Shown piece by piece: positions 3,426 through 19,192 of a DNA stretch of 19,305 nt; positions within the stretch are counted from its first letter, which is position 1; every line of letters starts with the position of its first letter. Under the pieces are notes generated by a model. The model did not search any database and was not told where the DNA came from. It was given only the letters and a program-made list of their open reading frames with translations. A program made the translations under genes and the position numbers. Source of the DNA: JAYKJB01 sp035284745 [NCBI: Candidatus Sericytochromatia bacterium] (lineage in GTDB: Bacteria; Cyanobacteriota; Sericytochromatia; S15B-MN24); NCBI GenBank assembly GCA_035284745.1, contig JAYKIL010000016.1:1-19305 (forward strand). The letters run 5' to 3'.

Positions 3426-4574
3426 CTAACCCCGATTCACCGGCATCAACAAACAAATTTGCGTGTCAGCCTCTAATGGCCGCAGCAAAACAGGCAGCAG
3501 CGGGGCATTCATACTGAGGCGCACCGTTTCTGCATCCATATGCTTCAGCGCATCAATGACATAGTTGGCATTGAAAGAAATAACCAACGGCTCTCCCGCG
3601 TAGGAAATCGGCAAAACTTCATCAGACTCGCCCATTTCAGAGGCTGCTGCCAACAATTTCAGTTCACCCGCGTTGAATTCAAGCTTGATGGTATGCGCCT
3701 CGCGATCAACCGCCATCACGCTCACGCGTTCAACGGCCGCAAGGAAGCTTGCTCTGTCGATGACAGCTTCCCGCTCAAAACTGGTTGGAATAATCTGACG
3801 ATAATTGGGATAGGTCCCATCTACCAAACGACTGGTCATGTAGCGATCGGGAAGTTGAAAAAGAACTTGGTTGTGTGCAGCGCGAATGGACATTGGCGCC
3901 GCTCCAACCAAAGACAGCTGTCGCGAAAGCTCATCAAGTGTTCGCTTGGGAATCACCAGCGCCAATTTGGCATCAGAATCGGCCAAGGGGGTTTGCTGCC
4001 ACGCCAGGCGAAATCCATCGGTGGCGGCTAACTCAAGTTTGCCTTCACTCAACTCCGTCAAAATACCCGAGATAACGGCTTTGTCCTCACCTGCCGCCGC
4101 ATACAGCGTTTGCTTTACGCAGCGGACCAATTCGGTTGAGACGAGCCCCACAGGAGGCGCATCTTCACTGGGTATCGGCAGTTCGGGGAATTCCTGCGCC
4201 GGCATTCCGCGCAACGTAAATTTGGCCCGCTGACAGCGCAAAGTAAGCGCGGATAAATCATCTCCCGTACGCATGTCCACATCCGCCGCAGGCAGTTTTG
4301 AAACAATGTCTGCCAACGTTTTCGCAGACAGAGCAATGGCCCCTGATTCACGAACATCTGCCTTAATTCGGATTTCGAGCCCAATTTCTAAGTCGGTTGC
4401 ACACAGGGTAATCCCTCCCCGGGCAGATTCTCCACCCGCATCCCACACTGCAAGTTCAGGGTCGGCCACTAATTTGAGGTGGGACAAAATAGGCAAAGGC
4501 CCTCGCGCTGAAACAGCACGGGAAACGGCTTGAATTCCTTTGGCGAGTTGTTCTCGGGACACTACGATGTGCAT
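3426..4574 (-). CDS. dnaN: DNA polymerase III beta subunit (sliding clamp)
   Basis: DnaN forms the dimeric ring that tethers DNA polymerase III to DNA and recruits other replication and repair proteins. The 382-residue protein begins MHIVVSREQLAKGIQAVSRA, continues with the typical LPILSHL stretch and has the CATDLEIGL strand of domain 1. It ends with the characteristic LLMPV C-terminus. Domain 1 carries a modestly longer loop (ELAVWDAGGESARGG) between the first long strand and the ATDLEI motif. The gene reads away from the origin and is followed 23 nt later by recF. A weak promoter candidate lies at 4624-4652, and an 11-bp inverted repeat lies just upstream of that. The dnaA transcript may also read through the origin into it. 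Confidence 0.98.
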   Translation of the reverse strand: MHIVVSREQLAKGIQAVSRAVSARGPLPILSHLKLVADPELAVWDAGGESARGGITLCATDLEIGLEIRIKADVRESGAIALSAKTLADIVSKLPAADVDMRTGDDLSALTLRCQRAKFTLRGMPAQEFPELPIPSEDAPPVGLVSTELVRCVKQTLYAAAGEDKAVISGILTELSEGKLELAATDGFRLAWQQTPLADSDAKLALVIPKRTLDELSRQLSLVGAAPMSIRAAHNQVLFQLPDRYMTSRLVDGTYPNYRQIIPTSFEREAVIDRASFLAAVERVSVMAVDREAHTIKLEFNAGELKLLAAASEMGESDEVLPISYAGEPLVISFNANYVIDALKHMDAETVRLSMNAPLLPVLLRPLEADTQICLLMPVNRG

Positions 4575-4726: not shown

Positions 4727-4750
4727 GGTTTTCCACCATGGCATGCCGAC

Positions 4751-4771
4751 TTATCCACCAAGTTATTCACA
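4751..4771 (+). promoter_or_regulatory. DnaA-box doublet 1
   Basis: TTATCCACC (4751-4759) and TTATTCACA (4763-4771), both one mismatch from TTATCCACA, lie in the same orientation with a 3-nt spacer. They sit on the dnaN side of the AT-rich tract. Confidence 0.8.
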
Positions 4772-4785
4772 ACGGTCTTTTTGCT

Positions 4786-4839
4786 TGTTTAAATTAAACG
4801 CTCATTAAAAAAAGACCTAATAAATTAAATTTTTTTATG
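4786..4839. other. AT-rich DNA unwinding element (candidate DUE)
   Basis: This is a strongly A/T-dominated tract with runs of A and T, including TAAATTAAATTTTTTTATGA near its right end. It lies directly beside three TAG trinucleotides and is bracketed by DnaA boxes. Such a tract is where DnaA normally opens the duplex. The role is inferred from composition and position. Confidence 0.7.
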
Positions 4840-4841
4840 AG

Positions 4842-4863
4842 TAGTAGTAGGGCCTGTGGAAAA
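4842..4863 (+). promoter_or_regulatory. DnaA-trio element, GC clamp and flanking DnaA box
   Basis: Three consecutive TAG trinucleotides (4842-4850; 3'-GAT-5' when read away from the box) are followed by GGCC (4851-4854) and an inverted DnaA box TGTGGAAAA (4855-4863, one mismatch). This order (AT-rich tract, trios, GC-rich spacer, DnaA box) and polarity match the basal unwinding system described for Bacillus subtilis oriC, where DnaA spreads from the box onto the trio strand. Confidence 0.75.
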
Positions 4864-4907
4864 CGTTGAAAACTGTTTCTATTACGCATGAAAGCAGGAT
4901 TTTTTCC

Positions 4908-4916
4908 TGTGGATAA
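4908..4916 (-). promoter_or_regulatory. Perfect DnaA box (inverted)
   Basis: TGTGGATAA on the plus strand is TTATCCACA on the minus strand, a perfect consensus box in the same orientation as the trio-proximal box at 4855-4863. A degenerate copy, TCTTGATAA, follows at 4919-4927. Confidence 0.85.
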
Positions 4917-4999
4917 TTTCTTGATAATTTAAGATCTTTTCCCGAAGTGGTTTGTGTGACTCAGGCTTTCCCCACGTTGTCCACGCCTAAAAAGCGCAG

Positions 5000-5020
5000 T
5001 TATCCACCAAGTTATCCACA
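5000..5020 (+). promoter_or_regulatory. DnaA-box doublet 2
   Basis: TTATCCACC (5000-5008) and perfect TTATCCACA (5012-5020) have the same orientation and a 3-nt spacer, giving a 12-nt period. Confidence 0.88.
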
Positions 5021-5189
5021 TTTGTGTTCACGGCGGCTGGTATTTTTAAAAATCATTCTCTCTAGTCAGTGATGGCAGGGGTTTCAGGGTTTTTCAGGTG
5101 TTTTTTAACAGGTGGAAAGGTGATCAGGGTTACAAATTTTGAAGATTTTATGCGGGGCTTCCCCCTGTTTTCCACGCCTTTTTGACCAG

Positions 5190-5210
5190 TTATCCACTGA
5201 GTTATCCACA
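5190..5210 (+). promoter_or_regulatory. DnaA-box doublet 3
   Basis: TTATCCACT (5190-5198) and perfect TTATCCACA (5202-5210) have the same 3-nt spacing as the other two doublets. They lie about 85 bp from the 3' end of dnaA. Confidence 0.88.
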
Positions 5211-5294: not shown

Positions 5295-6719
5295 TTAACC
5301 TTTGAGGCGTTGCTGCAGAAATTGCAGATCCGATGCCAATTGGGTATCGCGGCCAAGCTGGGTTTTTATTTTTTCAATCGCGTGCATCACGGTGGTGTGA
5401 TCACGCCCTCCAAAGCGACTTCCAATGACATTGAGGCTTTGGTCTGTCAGTTCGCGTGCCAGGTACATGGCCATTTGTCTCGCCAGGCTGATCTCTTTGG
5501 TTCGCCGTGAACCAACCAGATCTGTCACTTCTAGGTGATAGTGAGCCGCCACCACTTCATTGATCGTGGGAATGCTAATTTGGCGTAGAGGGGCAATGGT
5601 TCCTAAAGCTTTTTGCGCCAGTTGAATGTTGAGCGTTTCATTCGACAAACTGGCATACGCCATCACTCGAATGAATGCGCCTTCGAGTTCGCGGACATTT
5701 TTAGGATAGGCCGTCGCAATATAGTTCAAGACGTCATCCGGCGCTTGAATGGCATCCATGTCAGCTTTTTTCTTGAGAATGGCGATGCGGGTTTCAAGAT
5801 CGGGTGTCTGAATGTCTGTAATGAGTCCCCATTCAAAGCGATTGCGCAAACGATCGGTGAGTGCTGCGATCTCTTTTGGGGGCCGATCCGAACTGATAAC
5901 AATCTGTTTGCCCGCTTCATGCAGTGCGTTGAATGTGTGAAAAAACTCTTCCTGGGTGGCTTCTTTGCCCTCCATAAACTGAATGTCGTCCACCAACAGG
6001 AGATCAATTTGCCGATAACGATTCTTGAAGTCCATCATTCGGTCTTCTTTAATCGCATTGATGAGTTCATTGGTGAATTTTTCACTGGAGAGATAGGCCA
6101 CTTTCATTTCAGGATGCTTTGAAAGTAAATGGTGCGCGATGGCATGCATGAGATGGGTTTTACCTAGCCCGACATCGCCATAAATGAACAACGGGTTGTA
6201 AGCCCTTGCAGGGCTCTCTGCAACCGCCATGGCGGCGGCATGGGCAAAGTGACTGTGGGAGCCGATGACAAAGGTGGAAAACGTATATTTGCTGTTGAGT
6301 ATTCCGACCGTGGGGCCCGCATTGACCGTTTTGGGAACGCGTGAAATGAGTTCGCCCGATGTGTTTGACAGGAGATCAGGGGGCTCAGGCCGCTGGGTTG
6401 TGTCATTCAGGGGGATGGTGAATTCGACGTCGTAATTTTTCCCATCAAGCTCTCGTAAGATGTTTTGAATCAAAAGGTCGTGTTGATGCTTGCGCATCTG
6501 ATCCCGCATAAACCGGTTTGGAACCTCGACCAGTGCTTGACCCGATTCCAGCGCAACCAACTTCGACGGTTCAAACATCGTTTTGTAACCAGGGGTTGGA
6601 CCCAGTTGAGCTTGAATGCGCAGCAAGGCTGCCTGCCACAGTTCTTCAACCGACATGTATGGAATCCGATATTCAAACAAAGACGTGCGCCGCACAGGTC
6701 GCGGTTCCGTCAGGGACAA
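5295..6719 (-). CDS. dnaA: Chromosomal replication initiator protein DnaA
   Basis: DnaA is the AAA+ initiator that binds DnaA boxes, opens the origin and recruits the helicase. Counted from the upstream start (474 aa), domain I begins at the VEELWQAALLRIQ helix (24-36). Walker A GDVGLGKTH is at 181-189, Walker B VDDIQF at 243-248, and the domain IV box-recognition signature GGRDHTTVMHAIEKI at 437-451. The start is uncertain. The long form begins at TTG (6719-6717). An ATG at residue 22 (6656-6654) gives 453 aa starting MSVEELWQ, closer to the usual family N-terminus. Neither has a strong Shine-Dalgarno. The gene is followed by oriC and dnaN and diverges from rpmH. Autoregulation by DnaA is common in the family, but no clear box is visible upstream. 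Confidence 0.98.
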   Translation of the reverse strand: MSLTEPRPVRRTSLFEYRIPYMSVEELWQAALLRIQAQLGPTPGYKTMFEPSKLVALESGQALVEVPNRFMRDQMRKHQHDLLIQNILRELDGKNYDVEFTIPLNDTTQRPEPPDLLSNTSGELISRVPKTVNAGPTVGILNSKYTFSTFVIGSHSHFAHAAAMAVAESPARAYNPLFIYGDVGLGKTHLMHAIAHHLLSKHPEMKVAYLSSEKFTNELINAIKEDRMMDFKNRYRQIDLLLVDDIQFMEGKEATQEEFFHTFNALHEAGKQIVISSDRPPKEIAALTDRLRNRFEWGLITDIQTPDLETRIAILKKKADMDAIQAPDDVLNYIATAYPKNVRELEGAFIRVMAYASLSNETLNIQLAQKALGTIAPLRQISIPTINEVVAAHYHLEVTDLVGSRRTKEISLARQMAMYLARELTDQSLNVIGSRFGGRDHTTVMHAIEKIKTQLGRDTQLASDLQFLQQRLKG

Positions 6720-6940
6720 TGAAAAGAAGACTCAGCGGCGGATTGATCGCAGCCAGATTGGTGTGGTAAACTCCTAATCTTAGCCGGATCATAAGCGGCA
6801 GTTTGCCGTCTTCCGCGCCAGTCTGTTCATCGTAGCAGCTTGCCCCGGGTCGATCCAGCGTACTGATCTTGAACCGATTTTAATCCCTGGCGCGTTGCCG
6901 TTTGCTGGCCTCCCGCCACGAAAGGCAGGTGAAATTCGCT
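6720..6940. other. Divergent dnaA/rpmH intergenic region
   Basis: This 221-bp gap should carry the promoters for dnaA (minus) and the rpmH operon (plus). An rpmH promoter candidate is listed separately. A short perfect hairpin, CGGCA-GTT-TGCCG, sits at 6796-6808. A degenerate DnaA-box-like TGTGGTAAA (6762-6770, two mismatches) overlaps the rpmH -10 candidate. I see no convincing dnaA promoter and no good DnaA box here. Confidence 0.6.
6743..6772 (+). promoter_or_regulatory. Candidate rpmH operon promoter
   Basis: TTGATC (6743-6748) and TAAACT (6767-6772) are separated by 18 nt. The -10 candidate is preceded by TGG (6764-6766), giving an extended -10 element. Each hexamer matches 4 of 6 consensus positions. 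The predicted leader to rpmH would be about 160 nt. Confidence 0.4.
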
Positions 6941-7075
6941 ATGAAGATGACTTTTCAGCCCAAAAAGCGCCAACGTAAAAAGGTGCACGGCTTCCGTTCG
7001 CGCATGGCCACCCCGGGTGGACGCAATGTGCTGCGTCGCCGTCGTGCTAAAGGCCGCAAGCGTTTGACCGTCTAA
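6941..7075 (+). CDS. rpmH: 50S ribosomal protein L34
   Basis: L34 is a small, very basic protein of the large ribosomal subunit. The 44-residue product starts [20 protein letters not shown] and contains the family core [20 protein letters not shown] followed by KGRKRLTV, a full-length match to L34. An AGGTG at 6927-6931 serves as a moderate ribosome-binding site 9 nt before the ATG. It is the first gene of the rpmH-rnpA-yidD-yidC-khpB cluster and diverges from dnaA, the classic bacterial arrangement. The rnpA start lies only 11-14 nt after its stop, so the two are co-transcribed. Confidence 0.98.
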
Positions 7076-7089
7076 ACAAAGTAACGGTG

Positions 7090-7785: not shown

Positions 7786-8616
7786 ATGTTCGATTATTTG
7801 GTCAACGGCGTAATGATGCCCGTTTTGGTGAAGTTTCATGACATCTCTGGCAGCTATGGTTTTGCCATAATTATGCTCACCGTGCTGGTGAGGTTGCTAA
7901 TTTTTCCCTTGTCGGCGAAGCAGTATCGCAGCATGAAAGAAATGCAAGAACTGCAGCCCATGCTGAAACAAATTCAAGCCAAATACAAAGACAACCCACA
8001 AGAACTCAATCAGGCCATGATGGCCTTTTATCAGGAGCATAAAGTGAATCCCTTTGGGGGTTGCTTACCGCTGTTGATACAAATGCCTTTTTTGATTGCG
8101 CTCTACAGTGTTTTGATTTCCGAGTCGTTTGCTCAGCGCGTGGGACATCAGGGTTGGTTATTCATTCATGACTTGACGCGCGTTGGGTTTTATCCGCTGT
8201 GGCATCCCCCCTTAGATCCTTATGTAGGGTTTTTTCACTACCTGACCGAAGGGGCTTTGTATTGGGACAACGTAGGGATGATTGCCCTTTTTGGAATTAC
8301 GACCTACGTCACCCAGTTGATGATGATGACCGATCCCAATGATCCGATGCAGCGTCAAATGCTGAATACGATGCCTCTGGTCATCACCGTCATGTTTTTG
8401 CTCATTCCGCTGCCGGCTGGCGTTTTGTTGTACACCGTATTTTCTAACTTCTTCACGATGGGACAATACCTGGTGTTGAAGAATAGATACGGTGTTGCGA
8501 AACCGGCAGGTGCGGTGGCCTCGGCAGCCACGATCGATATTCCCGCAACGCCGGTTAAAGCCAGAGATAGCCACGCGGTCTCTAAGAATAAGGAGAGAAA
8601 GAATGGAATTCACTGA
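7786..8616 (+). CDS. yidC: Membrane protein insertase YidC (short form)
   Basis: YidC/Oxa1/Alb3 insertases place membrane proteins in the bilayer, alone or with SecYEG. The 276-residue product has about five hydrophobic segments. The conserved hydrophilic-groove arginine is R36 in TM1 (LTVLVRLLIFPLSAKQYRSM). A coiled-coil hairpin is followed by the KVNPFGGCLPLLIQMP motif and two C-terminal membrane segments. It has no large periplasmic P1 domain and no lipobox, so it differs from both proteobacterial YidC and the lipoprotein SpoIIIJ type. The N-terminus is short, starting just before TM1. The C-terminal tail is basic (KARDSHAVSKNKERKNGIH). Its last 14 nt overlap khpB, which implies translational coupling. 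Confidence 0.96.
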   Translation: MFDYLVNGVMMPVLVKFHDISGSYGFAIIMLTVLVRLLIFPLSAKQYRSMKEMQELQPMLKQIQAKYKDNPQELNQAMMAFYQEHKVNPFGGCLPLLIQMPFLIALYSVLISESFAQRVGHQGWLFIHDLTRVGFYPLWHPPLDPYVGFFHYLTEGALYWDNVGMIALFGITTYVTQLMMMTDPNDPMQRQMLNTMPLVITVMFLLIPLPAGVLLYTVFSNFFTMGQYLVLKNRYGVAKPAGAVASAATIDIPATPVKARDSHAVSKNKERKNGIH

Positions 8617-9202
8617 AGAAGCGGTTGAAGTGTCTCAAGAAACCATTCTTGACGCCGCGCTTGATTTTTTGGCCGAATTGGTTGGCGCGATGGATCTCGC
8701 CGCTGACATTGCGATTGTGAGTGAGACAGACGAGCAGATCACCATCCGGATCGATTCTGATGAAGATGCGGGGGTTCTGATTGGACGCAAAGGCCAAACG
8801 TTACAATCCGTCCAATATCTACTGAACGTTCTTTTCGGCACACGGCTTGACCGTCGTATAAATGTTGATGTGGGAGATTATCGGGCGCGGCACGAAGAAA
8901 AATTGCTGGAAGACGCCCATGCCGCGGCTGAGCGGGTTTTGGAAAGCGGCAAACGGTTCGCCTTGGAACCCATGACCCCTGCGGATCGCCGGACGGTGCA
9001 CCACCTGATTTCTGAGCAATATCCTGATCTCCAAACGTATTCTACAGGCGAAGAACCGACACGCCGTATTGTCATTGAGCCCAAGGGGGCTACGGGTCCT
9101 CGCCCAGGAGAGATTGGTCGCTGGGGAGGCGGACGCAGCCGCGATCCTCGAAATTTCGATGGGCGCCGGGGCGGTGCCTACCATTCACGCCGTCCGCGAT
9201 AA
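8603..9202 (+). CDS. khpB: RNA-binding protein KhpB/Jag family (KH-R3H), lacking the Jag-N domain
   Basis: KhpB (Jag, EloR) proteins bind RNA and, in Gram-positive bacteria, influence cell elongation. The 199-residue product has a type II KH domain with the GVLIGRKGQTLQSVQYLLN loop (57-75). An R3H segment follows, with RRTVHHLI at 129-136. It ends in a Gly/Arg-rich tail (GGGRSR to RRPR). The extra N-terminal Jag-N domain common in Firmicutes is absent; the protein begins almost directly with the KH domain. Start ATG 8603 has a strong site, AAGGAG, with its GGAG 7 nt upstream, and overlaps the yidC end. A longer frame from 8492 is only the yidC shadow. It is the last gene before a strong palindromic terminator. 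Confidence 0.94.
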   Translation: MEFTEEAVEVSQETILDAALDFLAELVGAMDLAADIAIVSETDEQITIRIDSDEDAGVLIGRKGQTLQSVQYLLNVLFGTRLDRRINVDVGDYRARHEEKLLEDAHAAAERVLESGKRFALEPMTPADRRTVHHLISEQYPDLQTYSTGEEPTRRIVIEPKGATGPRPGEIGRWGGGRSRDPRNFDGRRGGAYHSRRPR

Positions 9203-12887: not shown

Positions 12888-14684
12888 ATGGCCGACTATA
12901 CTTTTAGTGCGCCCGAAAGAAAGGCTGTGTACAGGGCCATTCGCGAGCGCCGTGACGTGAGGGCTTTTCGGCCAGAGCCCATCCCAGAAGATGTTTTTTG
13001 GCGATTGCTTGAAGCGGCTCACCAGGCTCCCTCGGTGGGCCGGATGCAGCCGTGGAATTTCGTCAGAATTACCGATCCAGCCCTGAAGCAAGGTGTTTAC
13101 AACCATTTTCGCGATATCAATGATCGGGCCGCCACCTTACACGGGGGCGATCGGCAAGCAACTTATCAGGCGTTGAAATTACAGGGCATTTTGGATGCGC
13201 CGCTCAATCTTCTGGTGACCTGTGATCGCACCCGGGGAGGCCCTCATGTTCTGGGGCGCACGACGATGCCGGAGATGGATGCCTACAGTACGTGTCTGGC
13301 GGTTCAGAATTTGTGGCTTGCTGCCCGGGCAGAAGGTCTGGGGGTTGGTTGGATGAGCCTGATGGAGCCAGAGGTTATTCAGGCCTTTTTTGGCCTGCCG
13401 TCTGAGGTGATCCCCATTGCGTACTTGTGTTTGGGATTTCCGGTCGATTTGCCTCCTGATCCGCTGCTGGGGCGGGTGGGTTGGCGTGATGGCTTGGAAC
13501 TGGCAGATTTGATTTTTCAAGATCGATGGGGCGTGACGTGGCAAGGGCCTGAAGGCTACGACGCTTTGGTGGCGAAATCAACACCATCCGTCACGGCGGT
13601 GATGACGCCTCGCCAGGCGGTTCGGCTCGAAGAAAAGGCGCCTTCGCTGTCGGAAACCGCGGCGCAAGATAGTTTACGTGACCGTTTTGCGCGTTTGCCG
13701 ACCCCGCCGGGTGCCTTGGGGGCCCTGGAAAAGTGGTTGATGCGCCTCGCGCAGATTCAAAACTCTGCGCGACCCCGGCTTGAGCGCCCGTGGATTGTTG
13801 TTTTTGCGGGAGACCATGGGATTGCAAAAAGCCGGTTGGTGAGCGCTTACCAACCGGAGGCCACCGCGTTGATGGTCTACAGGTTTCTCAGCGGGGGTGG
13901 TGTGGTGAATTCCTTGGCCCGCGATTCGGGGGCAGGTCTGGTTGTCGCAGATTTGGGCGTTGATCATGACTTTGGTGATGCGACCGCTTTATTTTCTGCC
14001 AAAGTGCGTCGTGGCACCCGGGATATGACGGTTGAGCCGGCGATGACTGACACTGAATTTGAGGCAGCGCGGGCCAGTGGCTACGAACTGATTATGGGGC
14101 TTGAGCAGCCAGATATGCTGCTGTTGGGTGAGCTTGGCATAGGCAATACGACGGCGGCATCGGCCGTATTGGCAGGTTTTTTGGGATTGACACCTGACGA
14201 AGCGACGGGCGCGGGCAGCGGTATTGGACCGGCAGGGCTCACACGCAAGCAAATGGCGATTGGAGATGCGTTGCGCCTCCACGGTGAGCACGCTTTGGGG
14301 GATGCCAATGAAAGCTTGCGGCGCTTGGGGGGCTATGAAATCGTAGCCTTGGTCGGGGCGATGGAGGCCGCTGCTGTGCGTCAGCTGCCTGTGTTGCTTG
14401 ATGGCTTTATTGTTGGGGTTGCCGCATTGATGGCCGTGAAGCGTAATCCTGCGGTGCAGGCCATTCTGTTGGCCGCGACGCGTTCAGCAGAACCGGCCCA
14501 TGCCCGGGTGCTGATGGAACTTGGTTTGGACGCGATGTTGGATTGGGGGCTGCGCTTAGGCGAGGCCAGTGCGGCGGCTTTGGCCCTCGGGCCCCTGCAA
14601 GCGGGATGTCGCTTGTTGGCAGAAGTGGCAACCTATGAAGAGGCCAATGTCGATGAACCCCTCGCGAGCGGGGGCCGCCTGTGA
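12888..14684 (+). CDS. bluB-cobT: BluB-CobT fusion: DMB synthase / nicotinate-nucleotide-DMB phosphoribosyltransferase
   Basis: Two successive steps of cobalamin lower-ligand synthesis are on one 598-residue chain. Residues 1 to about 215 are BluB, which oxygen-dependently fragments reduced FMN to 5,6-dimethylbenzimidazole. It has RRDVRAFRP (21-29), APSVGRMQPWNF (47-58) and the nitroreductase-fold C-terminal half (SLMEPEVIQAFFGLP). A linker of about 40 residues follows. Residues 255-598 are CobT, which attaches the base to ribose phosphate from nicotinate mononucleotide. It has LPTPPGALGALEKW, AGDHG (307-311), GELGIGNTTAA (414-424) and LRLGEASAA, where E559 matches the catalytic glutamate. 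Both parts keep their key motifs, so both should be active. The ATG lies 8 nt after the upstream gene, with AGGA before it. Its stop overlaps the cobS GTG (GTGA). Confidence 0.96.
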   Translation: MADYTFSAPERKAVYRAIRERRDVRAFRPEPIPEDVFWRLLEAAHQAPSVGRMQPWNFVRITDPALKQGVYNHFRDINDRAATLHGGDRQATYQALKLQGILDAPLNLLVTCDRTRGGPHVLGRTTMPEMDAYSTCLAVQNLWLAARAEGLGVGWMSLMEPEVIQAFFGLPSEVIPIAYLCLGFPVDLPPDPLLGRVGWRDGLELADLIFQDRWGVTWQGPEGYDALVAKSTPSVTAVMTPRQAVRLEEKAPSLSETAAQDSLRDRFARLPTPPGALGALEKWLMRLAQIQNSARPRLERPWIVVFAGDHGIAKSRLVSAYQPEATALMVYRFLSGGGVVNSLARDSGAGLVVADLGVDHDFGDATALFSAKVRRGTRDMTVEPAMTDTEFEAARASGYELIMGLEQPDMLLLGELGIGNTTAASAVLAGFLGLTPDEATGAGSGIGPAGLTRKQMAIGDALRLHGEHALGDANESLRRLGGYEIVALVGAMEAAAVRQLPVLLDGFIVGVAALMAVKRNPAVQAILLAATRSAEPAHARVLMELGLDAMLDWGLRLGEASAAALALGPLQAGCRLLAEVATYEEANVDEPLASGGRL

Positions 14685-16084: not shown

Positions 16085-19000
16085 CTAGGGTTGAAGCTGG
16101 AGTTCTTGTATTTGGCTTTTGACCAGGTCGATGTAGACCAAGCGGCCGTTGGGTGCAATCGCCAGGCTGGCGGGTCCTTGGGTGTCTCCGGGGCCTCCCG
16201 GGGCGCCAGAGCCTGCCAGGGTCTTGAGGTGGCCGTCGCTGGCTAGTTTGCGGATGCGACCCGGGATTTTGGGAAGATTGTCAAGGTTGATTCCTTGGAG
16301 TTCTTCGTGCGTCATCGATACTTTGCCTGCGCTGCCCAGTTCGGAGAGGTAAAGGGTGTCGTCTGGTGCCACGGCCAGTCCAGACGGAAGCAGTAAGGAC
16401 GCCTCCGTCGCCGGTATGTCTTGCTCGGTGGCCGCCTTGCCGTTTGCAACGGATACCAGTGTTTTTGCAAACCCGCTACCCGCGACGATGTGAACAATGT
16501 TCTCACGATCCAATTTGAGGACCTGGAGAGAACGGAGATCGGTAAAATACAGATTTCCTCGCTTGTCACAAGCCATGGCTGTAGGGCGATGGAGTCGCAC
16601 CTCCGTGCCCCGTTTTCCATCGCGTGTGTCATCGTCTGGATGGGCAGAATTTGAAGAACCCACCAGTCGGGTTAATGTGCCATTGGTTTCGATGCGCCAG
16701 ATACAGTCGGACATCGCCTCTTTACTTTCAAGGGTTGGGTGCTTCATGCTGGCAAAAATCACCCGGCCCTCGGGGTCCACTGTGACAGGTCCAATTTCCT
16801 CGAATCGCTGTTCGCGGGCGGGAACAAGGGTTTCAAGAGACGGCAAGATTCCCATTTTCGCACCCTCTAATTTGCCCGCCAGGGTTTCGATTTGGGCTTC
16901 TGCCGGGTTTGCGATGTTTCGAATGCGCCGGACGAGACGCGCCGTGGCTTCCATTATTACCAATTCATCGCCGGCGAATGCGATGTTTGAGGGGCCCATC
17001 AAGCGATCGGGAAGCGTGCCGTCTGTTGCTATGCCTGCCACACCGCCAGCTATGCGTTCGAGGCGATCGCCATTTAGGCGCCGAATACTGTGGGCGCCAT
17101 ATTCCGAGACGTAAATGTCCCCTTGTTTGTTCACAGCGAGACCCAGGGGGTTGTTCAGCGTCTCGCTCAGGGCGACGATATCTTGCGATCCGCGGTTGCC
17201 TGCGATGATAGTGACCTCTTTGGTTTCCGGATTGATGGCTCTCAGCAGCCCGTTATCGTAGTCTGTCACAATGACGCGGCCGTCCGGGGCGAGGGCGAGG
17301 CCCGTGGGGGTATTGAATCGTGCGCTTAAGGCTTGGACGCTCCCTTCATCCACGCCTGTTTGACCTTGGCCGGCGAAACGTTCCATGCGTCCGTCAGACC
17401 AGATGCGCTCGATGACGTGACGCTCCCGGGCTTCATCGGCCAGGGTCAGCAGGACTGTTTGGTCTGGCATCGCGAGCAAGGTGGCGATGTTGCTCATCTT
17501 CTCAGGAATTTGAACATTTAATTTTCGCCAGGCGCCCTGGTGGGGTTGAAAGTACAGCCCCCGAGAACCGTGAATGGCATAGACCCACAGGCCTTCTTGT
17601 GTTTCGGCAAAACCAATAAAACGCGTATCGAAGGCCTTGGGGTTGTCGTCCCAGGGCGTGGAATGTATTTGCAAGATTCTGCCCTGTGAATCCACTTTGA
17701 AAATACGTGGGGGTTCGAGGTCTGTGCCAAAACGCCCATCTGTGACCCATAGGTTGCCATCCAGAGCCGGGGTGGCGGGGCCAGGGCGATATAACGCGAC
17801 GGATGTACCCAGGGCCCCTGCTGTCAGGGTTCCCGTGCCTGTTCCAATCAGGGTCTGCATATTGGCGCCGTCAGTACTCACCCGTAAAACTGAGCGCCCA
17901 CGGTTTGGAACGAGGTAAAGCCAGCCGTTGGCTGCTGAGAAATGCTCGATGTCTGGCGCAAAGAGCCGCTGGTCTTCTTGGACGCAGGGGCCTAAAACAA
18001 ACCAACGGCGGCCATCGGGATCGATGCGGTAAACCATACCGCTGAATGCTTCACAGACGAACAGGGCGCCATCGGGTGTTGCCGCCACCGCTCGGGGAAG
18101 CCGGAGGGCGACGCGACGGGCGCTCAAGCCATCACGACACGAGTCGGTTCCCGCCAGGGGGGCGATGGTATAGCGGACGGTTTCTAGTTTTTCGGCCAAG
18201 CCGCTGTTGGCTTGGCTCTCGAGTGATTTTATTTCATTGGTGATGTCGACGCGGGTGAGTTTTTTGAAGTCTGGGGGCGTGGCTAAGGTATTTTTGATGC
18301 CTGTTAACGTGTCTTCGGCCAAGTGGTGAGGAAGACGGTTCAAGCGCTCTGCTTTGTCGACCTTGGCATCCAAGCCTGCTATCACATCGTTTTCAAGCCA
18401 GGTACACAGCATGCTGGACGCGGCGTTGATGGGGGTTGGATCAGGTCCCGGGTGGTCGGCTGTGCGCAGGCCTGCGAGACCGTAGATGTCGCTGCCCCGT
18501 TGGCCGATTGGCACGTAGAAAAAGAGGGCTGCGTTGGCTTTCAGATTACGAAAATAAACGTTGCCGTTGGCGTCTGTTTTGGCCACCAGCAGTTTTTTCG
18601 CGTCATCAACGATGAACCTTCCGTCGGCCGTCCTAAGATAAACAGAGATTCCTGCAAAGGGCTTTTCTGGGGAGGAAGCCTGCCGAAGTTTATAAGATGC
18701 GCCATCGAGCCCAATGAGGCTGGCGCCATCAAGGCCAATGAGGCTGGAGGGCACAGTGAGTTGTGCTTGTATGCTGGCGCCATCGAGCCCAATGAGGCTG
18801 GCGCCATCGAGCCCAATGAGGCTGGCGCCGTCGAGCCCAATGAGGCTGGCGCCGTCGAGCCCAATGAGGCTGGCGCCGTCGAGCCCAACCAGACTGGCCG
18901 TGTTGAGACCCGTGCGATTTTCTTGTGGTGATGGTTTGGAGCGCAAGATGCCCGGCTTGTCTTTGGGCGGGGCGAAAACGGGGGCTTGGGGTTGGCACGC

Positions 19001-19090
19001 AACCAGGCTGATGGCGAGGGCGAGAGCAGCAGAGATGTAAAGGGTTTTCAAAAATGGAAGGCCTCGAAATAAGCTTCGTATTAAAGTCAT
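16085..19090 (-). CDS. Large lipoprotein with octapeptide repeats and NHL-type beta-propeller repeats
   Basis: This is a 1001-residue predicted lipoprotein of unknown function. I start at ATG 19090, which gives a standard signal (MTLIRSLFRG, then AALALAISLVAC) with lipobox LVAC and C32 as the lipidated residue. A TTG at 19159 would add 23 residues that spoil the signal. Seven copies of (A/S)SL(I/V)GLDG occupy 65-104 and 115-130. A small Ig- or carboxypeptidase-regulatory-like domain follows (about 141-195: GISVYLRTADGRF, LVAKTDANGNVYFRNLKANA). From about 315 onward come repeated NHL/SMP-30-like blades such as GLALAPDGRVIVTDYDNGLL, GLAVNKQGDIYVSEYGAHSI and LAIAPNGRLVYIDLVKSQI. Such propellers usually bind ligands or proteins. 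The gene reads towards cobC and away from a divergent secreted-protein gene. Confidence 0.9.
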   Translation of the reverse strand: MTLIRSLFRGLPFLKTLYISAALALAISLVACQPQAPVFAPPKDKPGILRSKPSPQENRTGLNTASLVGLDGASLIGLDGASLIGLDGASLIGLDGASLIGLDGASIQAQLTVPSSLIGLDGASLIGLDGASYKLRQASSPEKPFAGISVYLRTADGRFIVDDAKKLLVAKTDANGNVYFRNLKANAALFFYVPIGQRGSDIYGLAGLRTADHPGPDPTPINAASSMLCTWLENDVIAGLDAKVDKAERLNRLPHHLAEDTLTGIKNTLATPPDFKKLTRVDITNEIKSLESQANSGLAEKLETVRYTIAPLAGTDSCRDGLSARRVALRLPRAVAATPDGALFVCEAFSGMVYRIDPDGRRWFVLGPCVQEDQRLFAPDIEHFSAANGWLYLVPNRGRSVLRVSTDGANMQTLIGTGTGTLTAGALGTSVALYRPGPATPALDGNLWVTDGRFGTDLEPPRIFKVDSQGRILQIHSTPWDDNPKAFDTRFIGFAETQEGLWVYAIHGSRGLYFQPHQGAWRKLNVQIPEKMSNIATLLAMPDQTVLLTLADEARERHVIERIWSDGRMERFAGQGQTGVDEGSVQALSARFNTPTGLALAPDGRVIVTDYDNGLLRAINPETKEVTIIAGNRGSQDIVALSETLNNPLGLAVNKQGDIYVSEYGAHSIRRLNGDRLERIAGGVAGIATDGTLPDRLMGPSNIAFAGDELVIMEATARLVRRIRNIANPAEAQIETLAGKLEGAKMGILPSLETLVPAREQRFEEIGPVTVDPEGRVIFASMKHPTLESKEAMSDCIWRIETNGTLTRLVGSSNSAHPDDDTRDGKRGTEVRLHRPTAMACDKRGNLYFTDLRSLQVLKLDRENIVHIVAGSGFAKTLVSVANGKAATEQDIPATEASLLLPSGLAVAPDDTLYLSELGSAGKVSMTHEELQGINLDNLPKIPGRIRKLASDGHLKTLAGSGAPGGPGDTQGPASLAIAPNGRLVYIDLVKSQIQELQLQP
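18701..18898 (-). repeat. 24-bp tandem repeats encoding SLIGLDGA octapeptides
   Basis: Five 24-bp units (18779-18898) and two more (18701-18748) are separated by a 30-bp non-repeat insert encoding ASIQAQLTVP. The copies differ at only a few bases, for example GCCATC versus GCCGTC on the plus strand. The unit length keeps the frame, so gain or loss of copies would alter protein length by eight residues without a frameshift. Confidence 0.95.
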
Positions 19091-19192
19091 ATACCCATCT
19101 TTGGATTTTGGATTTTGTGGGATCGCGCTTGCGGGTATAAGCGAGGAGACGAAAGACAATGGGTCTCCGGCCTTTTAGAAAGGGATGATTTT
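19091..19192. promoter_or_regulatory. Divergent promoter region between the lipoprotein and the right-end gene
   Basis: A good -10 hexamer, TATAAG (19136-19141, plus strand), lies about 50 nt before the right-end gene; its -35 is poor (TTTTGT at 19113-19118, 17-nt spacer). Just beside the lipoprotein start, TTTGGAT is tandemly repeated twice, then followed by TTTGTGG (about 19100-19120), a short imperfect direct repeat that could bind a regulator. Confidence 0.4.

What the first reader, a model, noticed from the sequence alone, without database searches (positions are those of the whole stretch)
4786..4863. Bacillus-type basal unwinding module (DnaA-trio) in the origin
The order is an AT-rich tract, TAG-TAG-TAG, GGCC, then an inverted DnaA box TGTGGAAAA, with the perfect box TGTGGATAA 44 nt further on. 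Polarity, spacing and location (dnaN side of the dnaA-dnaN gap) match the basal unwinding system of B. subtilis, where DnaA passes from boxes onto 3'-GAT-5' trios. If the organism is not a Firmicute, this adds a clear example of the module with its exact opening site.
Basis: partly seen in the sequence, partly recalled or inferred. Interest (0 to 1): 0.6.

Follow-up and report, generated by a model that had tools for sequence, protein, structure and literature searches.

The report
Origin-opening module of a cyanobacterial relative
This is the short stretch of DNA where the chromosome of a non-photosynthetic relative of cyanobacteria very probably first opens for copying, built the same way as the well-studied one of Bacillus; it is a clear example of a widely known system rather than a new one.

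Summary
On the minus strand (dnaA sense) the dnaA-dnaN gap reads TTTTCCACA-GGCC-CTA-CTA-CTA-CTC-ATA, followed by the least stable DNA of the 19.3-kb window. Polarity, spacing and place are those of the published basal unwinding system (BUS); the window's DnaA keeps 7 of 9 residues named for B. subtilis.

The window lies in Cyanobacteriota, in a class without photosystem I genes (Sericytochromatia inferred). The module lies upstream of dnaN in 13 of 18 genomes of that class. A leave-one-out profile ranks it first in the window (40.0 bits; best elsewhere -2.4). The profile also hits the dnaA-dnaN gap of Priestia megaterium.

Two things were missed. A degenerate co-oriented box (4864-4872) sits in the DnaA-box#6 position. 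The 'perfect box' is a distal box 44 bp from it, centre to centre, the shortest spacing that worked in B. subtilis; related origins use 43-46, 53-58 or 64-69, about whole turns apart.

BUS is already predicted in 85% of bacterial origins and tested with Synechococcus DnaA: a new member of a known kind. Unwinding itself is not shown.

The parts
4836..4850 (-). five DnaA-trios, 3'-GAT-GAT-GAT-GAG-TAT-5' on the + strand (CTA CTA CTA CTC ATA on the - strand)
   Evidence: first CTA invariant in 14 of 14 aligned loci
4851..4854 (-). GC spacer GGCC between proximal box and trios
   Evidence: the aligned 4 nt hold 3-4 G/C in 11 of 14 rows
4855..4863 (-). proximal DnaA box TTTTCCACA (position I equate with B. 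subtilis box#7); TTTTCCACA is the published species-specific box of cyanobacteria
   Evidence: PMC4674748 passages
4864..4872 (-). degenerate co-oriented box TTTTCAACG in the position I equate with B. subtilis box#6 (3 mismatches to TTATCCACA); 0-2 mismatches in 10 of 13 relatives
4908..4916 (-). distal co-oriented perfect box TTATCCACA, 44 bp centre to centre from the box#6 position
   Evidence: PMC6669920 section 6
4771..4850 (.). predicted unwinding element: least stable 80 bp of the window
4729..4771 (+). box triad C on the dnaN side (4729-4737, 4751-4759, 4763-4771), boxes facing the AT tract
4977..5020 (+). box triad B (4977-4985, 5000-5008, 5012-5020)
5168..5210 (+). box triad A (5168-5176, 5190-5198, 5202-5210)
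5295..6719 (-). dnaA (ORF opens at a TTG; homology starts near residue 20-22, so the true start may be the ATG at 6656)
3426..4574 (-). dnaN

Best explanation
The 720-bp dnaA-dnaN gap is the chromosome origin, and 4836-4872 is its basal unwinding system. DnaA binds the co-oriented tandem boxes (4864-4872 weak, 4855-4863 good), helped by DnaA held at the distal box 4908-4916 and at the triads, probably through a DNA loop. Its AAA+ domains then assemble in the direction of the trios, capture the first two bases of each 3'-GAT-5' trio on the + strand, and so melt the AT-rich tract 4771-4850, where the first helicase would be loaded. Shown here: sequence, position, conservation, low computed duplex stability, and DnaA contact residues. 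Inferred from B. subtilis and other tested species: binding, loop, filament, melting and helicase loading.
For: Elements and polarity equal to the published BUS. Rare by chance. Upstream of dnaN in 13 of 18 class genomes, by a model built from these sites; rank 1 leave-one-out in 14 of 14 loci, and still rank 1 for the window after dropping G032 and G050 (34.9 bits, best elsewhere 0.5). In 97 dnaN-upstream regions outside the class, fetched without regard to the motif, 43 reach a module score of 2.5 on the dnaN-sense strand and 2 on the other. Same module in Priestia, and a weaker match in Paenibacillus. Least stable DNA of the window. DnaA aligned with 8btg: E183, N187, I190, K222, E223, E228 and R264 kept. 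The distal box lies at a spacing that works in B. subtilis.
Against: No DnaA-binding or melting data. Residues N196 and R202 of B. subtilis DnaA are D and K here. The box#6 position, the one box needed in B. subtilis, is degenerate in the window. 5 of 18 class genomes gave no hit: G013, G016, G044 and G056 lack a full dnaN in the search, and G035 has a dnaN with no module in the 1.3 kb upstream. Under the box/trio rule alone 5 of 15 regions fail: G022, G007, G019, G038 and G035; G059 is marginal at 0.045. 54 of 97 regions outside the class did not reach the score, and of the 43 that did only 11 have a TCCACA-type box, 28 a TTTTCTACA box and 4 neither. The cumulative GC-skew minimum is at 4448, about 400 bp away and shallow. 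The distal box is absent at up to 1 mismatch in the two nearest relatives, G032 and G050.
Confidence: 0.9

Rival explanations
1. The trios are one part of a two-sided opener: DnaA is also loaded from the facing box pair 4751-4771 on the dnaN side, onto the other strand, so the AT tract is opened and served from both ends.
For: A third copy of the box triad lies on the dnaN side with boxes facing the AT tract; among 14 loci only the window, G032 and G050 have boxes with at most 1 mismatch between trios and dnaN. G050 has a facing box TTATCCCCA 24 nt after the trio start, and its opposite strand scores 2.5 as a module. In other Cyanobacteriota inverted TAG runs face the CTA trios 30-41 nt after the trio start: 8 of 30 loci, about 1.0 expected from base shuffles.
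Against: No TAG array on that side in the window; the best opposite-strand score of the gap is 1.5, and comes from triad B rather than from the facing pair. In G032 the facing boxes are over 100 nt from the trios; most of those of G050 lie 800 nt or more away. 11 of 14 loci have no facing box.
Confidence: 0.1
2. The motif is only a box cluster next to an AT tract with a chance or low-complexity CTA run; opening depends on AT content and box-driven strain, not on the trios.
For: TAGTAGTAG alone is only mildly rare; the AT tract is the least stable DNA of the window.
Against: The first CTA and the A of the second trio are invariant in 14 of 14 rows; trio columns carry 1.47 bits on average against 0.73 in the AT tract and 0.36 on the left flank; the order box, short spacer, trios recurs in other Cyanobacteriota and in Priestia.
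Confidence: 0.06
3. The motif is a transcription signal of dnaA or dnaN (for example the hairpin at 4775-4817 as a terminator).
For: The 47-nt stretch 4773-4819 folds better than all but 1 of 200 shuffles on either strand.
Against: The hairpin lies outside the conserved block; in the class the module precedes dnaN also where dnaA is far away (G024, about 267 kb apart on one contig). No hairpin was folded in relatives.
Confidence: 0.03

Closest known systems
Basal unwinding system (BUS) of B. subtilis incC (PMC6669920, PMC10721633)
   Same: dnaA-dnaN gap; tandem co-oriented boxes, 3'-GAT-5' trios, distal box in helical phase; most DnaA contact residues
   Different: Here the box#6 position is the degenerate one and the trio-proximal box the better one; extra box triads, one beyond the AT tract; different phylum
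Predicted BUS of cyanobacteria, tested with Synechococcus elongatus DnaA (PMC8287927)
   Same: same phylum, same module
   Different: dnaA is directly followed by the origin and dnaN in the window; I did not see this class named in the sections read (supplements not seen)
Cyanobacterial oriC next to dnaN with TTTTCCACA boxes (Cyanothece 51142, PMC4674748)
   Same: box type, dnaN side, AT stretch
   Different: of that paper only passages were seen; a term search of its main text found neither 'spacing' nor 'helical'

Membership tests
Basal unwinding system (BUS) | DnaA box (at most 2 mismatches to TTATCCACA) with 0-16 nt to the trios | tested here: met
   TTTTCCACA, 1 mismatch, 4 nt
Basal unwinding system (BUS) | at least three consecutive 3'-NAN-5' trios, GAT the commonest, above all nearest the box | tested here: met
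   five, the first three GAT
Basal unwinding system (BUS) | co-oriented tandem boxes (the commonest arrangement, 57%) | tested here: met
   second box TTTTCAACG directly upstream, 3 mismatches; the published limit for the weaker box is 4
Basal unwinding system (BUS) | distal DnaA box at least 44 bp upstream of the box#6 position, in helical phase (B. subtilis) | tested here: met
   44 bp; not present in the nearest relatives G032 and G050
Basal unwinding system (BUS) | unstable DNA directly after the trios | tested here: met
   least stable stretch of the window
Basal unwinding system (BUS) | DnaA with trio-reading residues and arginine finger | tested here: met
   7 of the 9 residues named in the passages of PMC10721633 identical; N196D and R202K differ. 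That paper says none of the ISM residues is universally conserved
Basal unwinding system (BUS) | conserved in relatives | tested here: met
Basal unwinding system (BUS) | DnaA-dependent strand separation that needs boxes and trios | not testable with these tools
   bench assay
Basal unwinding system (BUS) | required for replication in vivo | not testable with these tools
   genetics needed
Firmicutes-type DnaD recognition element opposite the trios (PMC10201434, passages) | DnaD present, TnnT pairs | not tested
   no DnaD search made

The most novel reading that the evidence does not exclude
The opening site of this lineage is two-sided: DnaA is loaded onto one strand from the BUS and onto the other from facing boxes (window, G032, G050) or from facing inverted trios (several other Cyanobacteriota), which would let DnaA alone place both helicases without a DnaD-like partner.
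Probability: 0.08. Interest if true: 0.75.

Novelty: new member of a known kind. Interest (0 to 1): 0.35.

Why it matters
It extends the basal unwinding system, base by base, to a non-photosynthetic sister lineage of cyanobacteria in which dnaA, origin and dnaN are still together, and shows that inside this class the module stays beside dnaN when dnaA is elsewhere. It also turns the loop model of B. subtilis into a comparative prediction: where a co-oriented distal box is present, it lies about 44, 55 or 66 bp from the box#6 position, whole helical turns apart. Both can be tested with purified DnaA and short DNA.

Tried and rejected
Single-protein DnaA scan of genome contigs returned 80 distant, mostly actinobacterial loci at about 41-55% identity; it misled on taxonomy and was replaced by LepA identity. 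Second BUS elsewhere in the window: none (next hit 4.2 bits, E 1.1). RNA families: none at gathering score. Inverted TAG runs after the trios of the window: none. Upstream of dnaA (6720-7087) no box with at most 1 mismatch. Literature (listings only): 'DnaA-trio' with cyanobacteria terms gave 3 papers; terms for both strands, inverted and second helicase gave 1,576 papers of which 15 were listed, and I saw nothing on convergent trios there; Sericytochromatia with origin of replication gave 1 paper, off the subject. This is no proof that such work is absent.

Rows dropped: one search found hits in 34 of 194 genomes, 21 outside the class; loci of 17 of these 21 were fetched. One search used 16 of these 17 loci (without L172, which lacks the start pattern); one search used 15 of 17 (also without L174, at a contig end) plus L277. 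L177/L178 and L162/L163 are close pairs and not independent. Five of the 97 blind regions are shorter than 1 kb. The phase test was made after the distances had been seen.

Full report
What is there. The window carries lepA, recF, dnaN and dnaA on the minus strand, with rnpA, yidD, yidC and jag on the plus strand beyond dnaA. Between dnaN (3426-4574) and dnaA (5295-6719) lies a 720-bp gap. Read in dnaA sense, the core is TTTTCAACG (4864-4872), TTTTCCACA (4855-4863), GGCC (4851-4854), then CTA CTA CTA CTC ATA (4850 down to 4836), then AT-rich DNA.

Chance. The combined pattern with up to 3 mismatches occurs once in 19,305 bases, 0.01 expected. The bare TAG run is less impressive. Under a rule modelled on the published search program (box with at most 2 mismatches, spacer 0-16, at least 3 trios with a central A; the score for CTA is my own), 0 of 200 dinucleotide shuffles of the gap reach the observed score. 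The tract 4771-4850 is the least stable 80 bp of the window by nearest-neighbour energy, and overlapping stretches are so at 40 and 60 bp. The cumulative GC skew turns at 4448, consistent with an origin near here but not sharp.

Which organism. No genome is held for the window. In a 39-genome sample of that phylum 13 have photosystem I (PsaA/PsaB), G002 among them; in the 18-genome class of G032 none has. I infer a non-photosynthetic class of Cyanobacteriota, probably Sericytochromatia; that placement of the name comes from no call.

Conservation. Six relatives keep dnaA directly before dnaN on one contig, and all six carry the module on the dnaN side. For eight more the region upstream of dnaN was fetched: seven carry it, G035 does not. 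So 14 of 15 regions, the window included, have it, by eye and by aligned position; one search gives box, spacer and trios for each. The strict rule alone is less generous: 9 of 15 regions beat at least 99.5% of shuffles, G059 95.5%, and G022, G007, G019, G038 and G035 fail, because their boxes or trios diverge or are absent. A 60-column alignment has CTA of the first trio invariant in 14 of 14 rows; mean information is 1.47 bits in the trio columns, 1.22 in the proximal box, 0.90 in the upstream box, 0.73 in the AT tract and 0.36 in the left flank. Leave-one-out profiles rank the true site first in 14 of 14 loci; the window scores 40.0 against -2.4 for the best place elsewhere, and 34.9 against 0.5 with G032 and G050 also left out. 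The sequence model R1 finds it in 13 of 18 class genomes, once each except G027 (twice, see the items noticed) and G024 (a second hit at E = 0.047); these genomes supplied the model, so it is the near-uniqueness that counts. The five without a hit are G013, G016, G035, G044 and G056; all but G035 have no full dnaN in the search. The model thus recovered none of the class genomes that it was not built from.

Outside the class. R1 hits 34 of 194 genomes of the phylum sample at E 0.001, with stricter filters: 13 of the class and 21 outside. Loci of 17 of the 21 were fetched; 14 of the 17 hold dnaN, L162 (G185), L163 (G095) and L166 (G033) do not. These are real exceptions to 'next to dnaN': in G033 the module follows dnaA, and dnaN is elsewhere on the contig; in G095 module and dnaN are about 108 kb apart. 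A sample blind to the motif, 97 dnaN-upstream regions outside the class, has 43 at score 2.5 or more on the dnaN-sense strand and 2 on the opposite strand. Of the 43, 11 have a TCCACA-type box, 28 a TTTTCTACA box and 4 neither; several of the 43 look like chance matches in coding or AT-rich DNA. R1 also finds the dnaA-dnaN gap of Priestia megaterium (31.4 bits) and a site about 90 bp after dnaA in Paenibacillus (23.2 bits); both records are filed as plasmids. 'Bacillus-type' is therefore literal.

First, the tandem partner. In 10 of 13 relatives the upstream box, 12-13 nt from the trios, has 0-2 mismatches to TTATCCACA; in the window it has 3 and the proximal box 1. In B. subtilis the upstream box is the needed one (PMC8287927), so the window is a small variant. 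Second, the distal box. The box 4908-4916 is 44 bp, centre to centre, from the box#6 position. In B. subtilis a distal box had to be at least 44 bp away and then worked in helical phase, which led to the loop model (PMC6669920 section 6). In the class, 9 of 14 loci have a co-oriented distal box (at most 1 mismatch to TTATCCACA or TTTTCCACA) within 25-100 bp; the distances are 43, 44 or 46, then 55-58, then 66-69. Taking the nearest one per genome, the clustering at a period of 10.5-11 bp has P = 1e-4 against uniform positions; the test was post hoc and without correction for kinship. In 15 of 15 cyanobacterial loci outside the class that were measured one distance is 53-56, and in 14 of them another is 64-67. 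G032, G027, G022, G007 and G050 have none, so the window's nearest relatives do not share it; Priestia has none by this measure either. Third, the other boxes form three copies of one triad: 22-23 bp and then 12 bp between box starts. One copy lies on the dnaN side of the AT tract and faces it; of 14 loci only the window, G032 and G050 have boxes there.

Mechanism. The published model is that DnaA bound to the tandem boxes extends as an oligomer over the trios, captures two bases of each trio and so separates the strands (PMC10721633, passages). The nine residues named in those passages were read off the alignment of the window's DnaA with PDB 8btg: E183, N187, I190, K222, E223, E228 and R264 are kept, N196 is D and R202 is K. 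I193, which I recall as a further ISM residue, is also kept. Nothing here measures binding or melting.

Known or new. BUS was predicted in 1755 of 2070 species and its activity shown with DnaA of six further species, Synechococcus elongatus among them (PMC8287927: outline, the search-program section and the results section read; supplements not). PMC6669920 was read in outline and in sections 5, 6 and 12. Cyanobacterial origins next to dnaN with TTTTCCACA boxes are also in print (PMC4674748, passages), as is a DnaD element opposite the trios in B. subtilis (PMC10201434, passages). The finding is a well-supported new member of a known kind. The natural helical phasing of the distal box and the facing elements are additions that I did not see in the passages read; that is not a claim that nobody has described them.

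Noticed in passing
L112 (G027) 5887-6603 and 8150-8865: The whole origin gap is present twice, on both sides of dnaA, about 91% identical (64 differences in 717 columns). The module lies in a 61-bp identical block (chance of a run that long over the module about 0.013), but two longer identical runs, 89 and 71 bp, lie elsewhere, so this is weak evidence of selection. An assembly error is not excluded.
   Followed up: partly
L162, L163, L165, L166, L169, L171, L145, L120, 30-41 nt after the trio start: Inverted TAG runs face the CTA trios across the AT tract (8 of 30 loci, about 1.0 expected): convergent trios on opposite strands, or a simple inverted repeat.
   Followed up: partly
L142 (G050) 6171-6764: An ORF of 197 aa on the minus strand sits between the unwinding module and dnaN; it looks like an acyltransferase by eye, no family search made.
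   Followed up: no
L166 (G033) and L163 (G095): In these genomes outside the class the module is not beside dnaN: after dnaA in G033, about 108 kb from dnaN in G095.
   Followed up: no
window 4775-4817: Nested inverted repeat GGTCTTTTT...AAAAAGACC inside the AT tract; only 1 of 200 shuffles folds as well.
   Followed up: partly
28 of the 97 blind regions, for example L183, L189, L208, L214: The best-scoring module follows a diverged box TTTTCTACA, often with trios TTA TTA TTA CTA, so box and trios seem to have drifted in that lineage.
   Followed up: partly
window 12888-14684: BluB and CobT are fused in one reading frame, followed by CobS and a CobC-like phosphatase.
   Followed up: no
window 16085-19159: NHL-repeat protein with a run of ASLIGLDG repeats near its N-terminus.
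   Followed up: no
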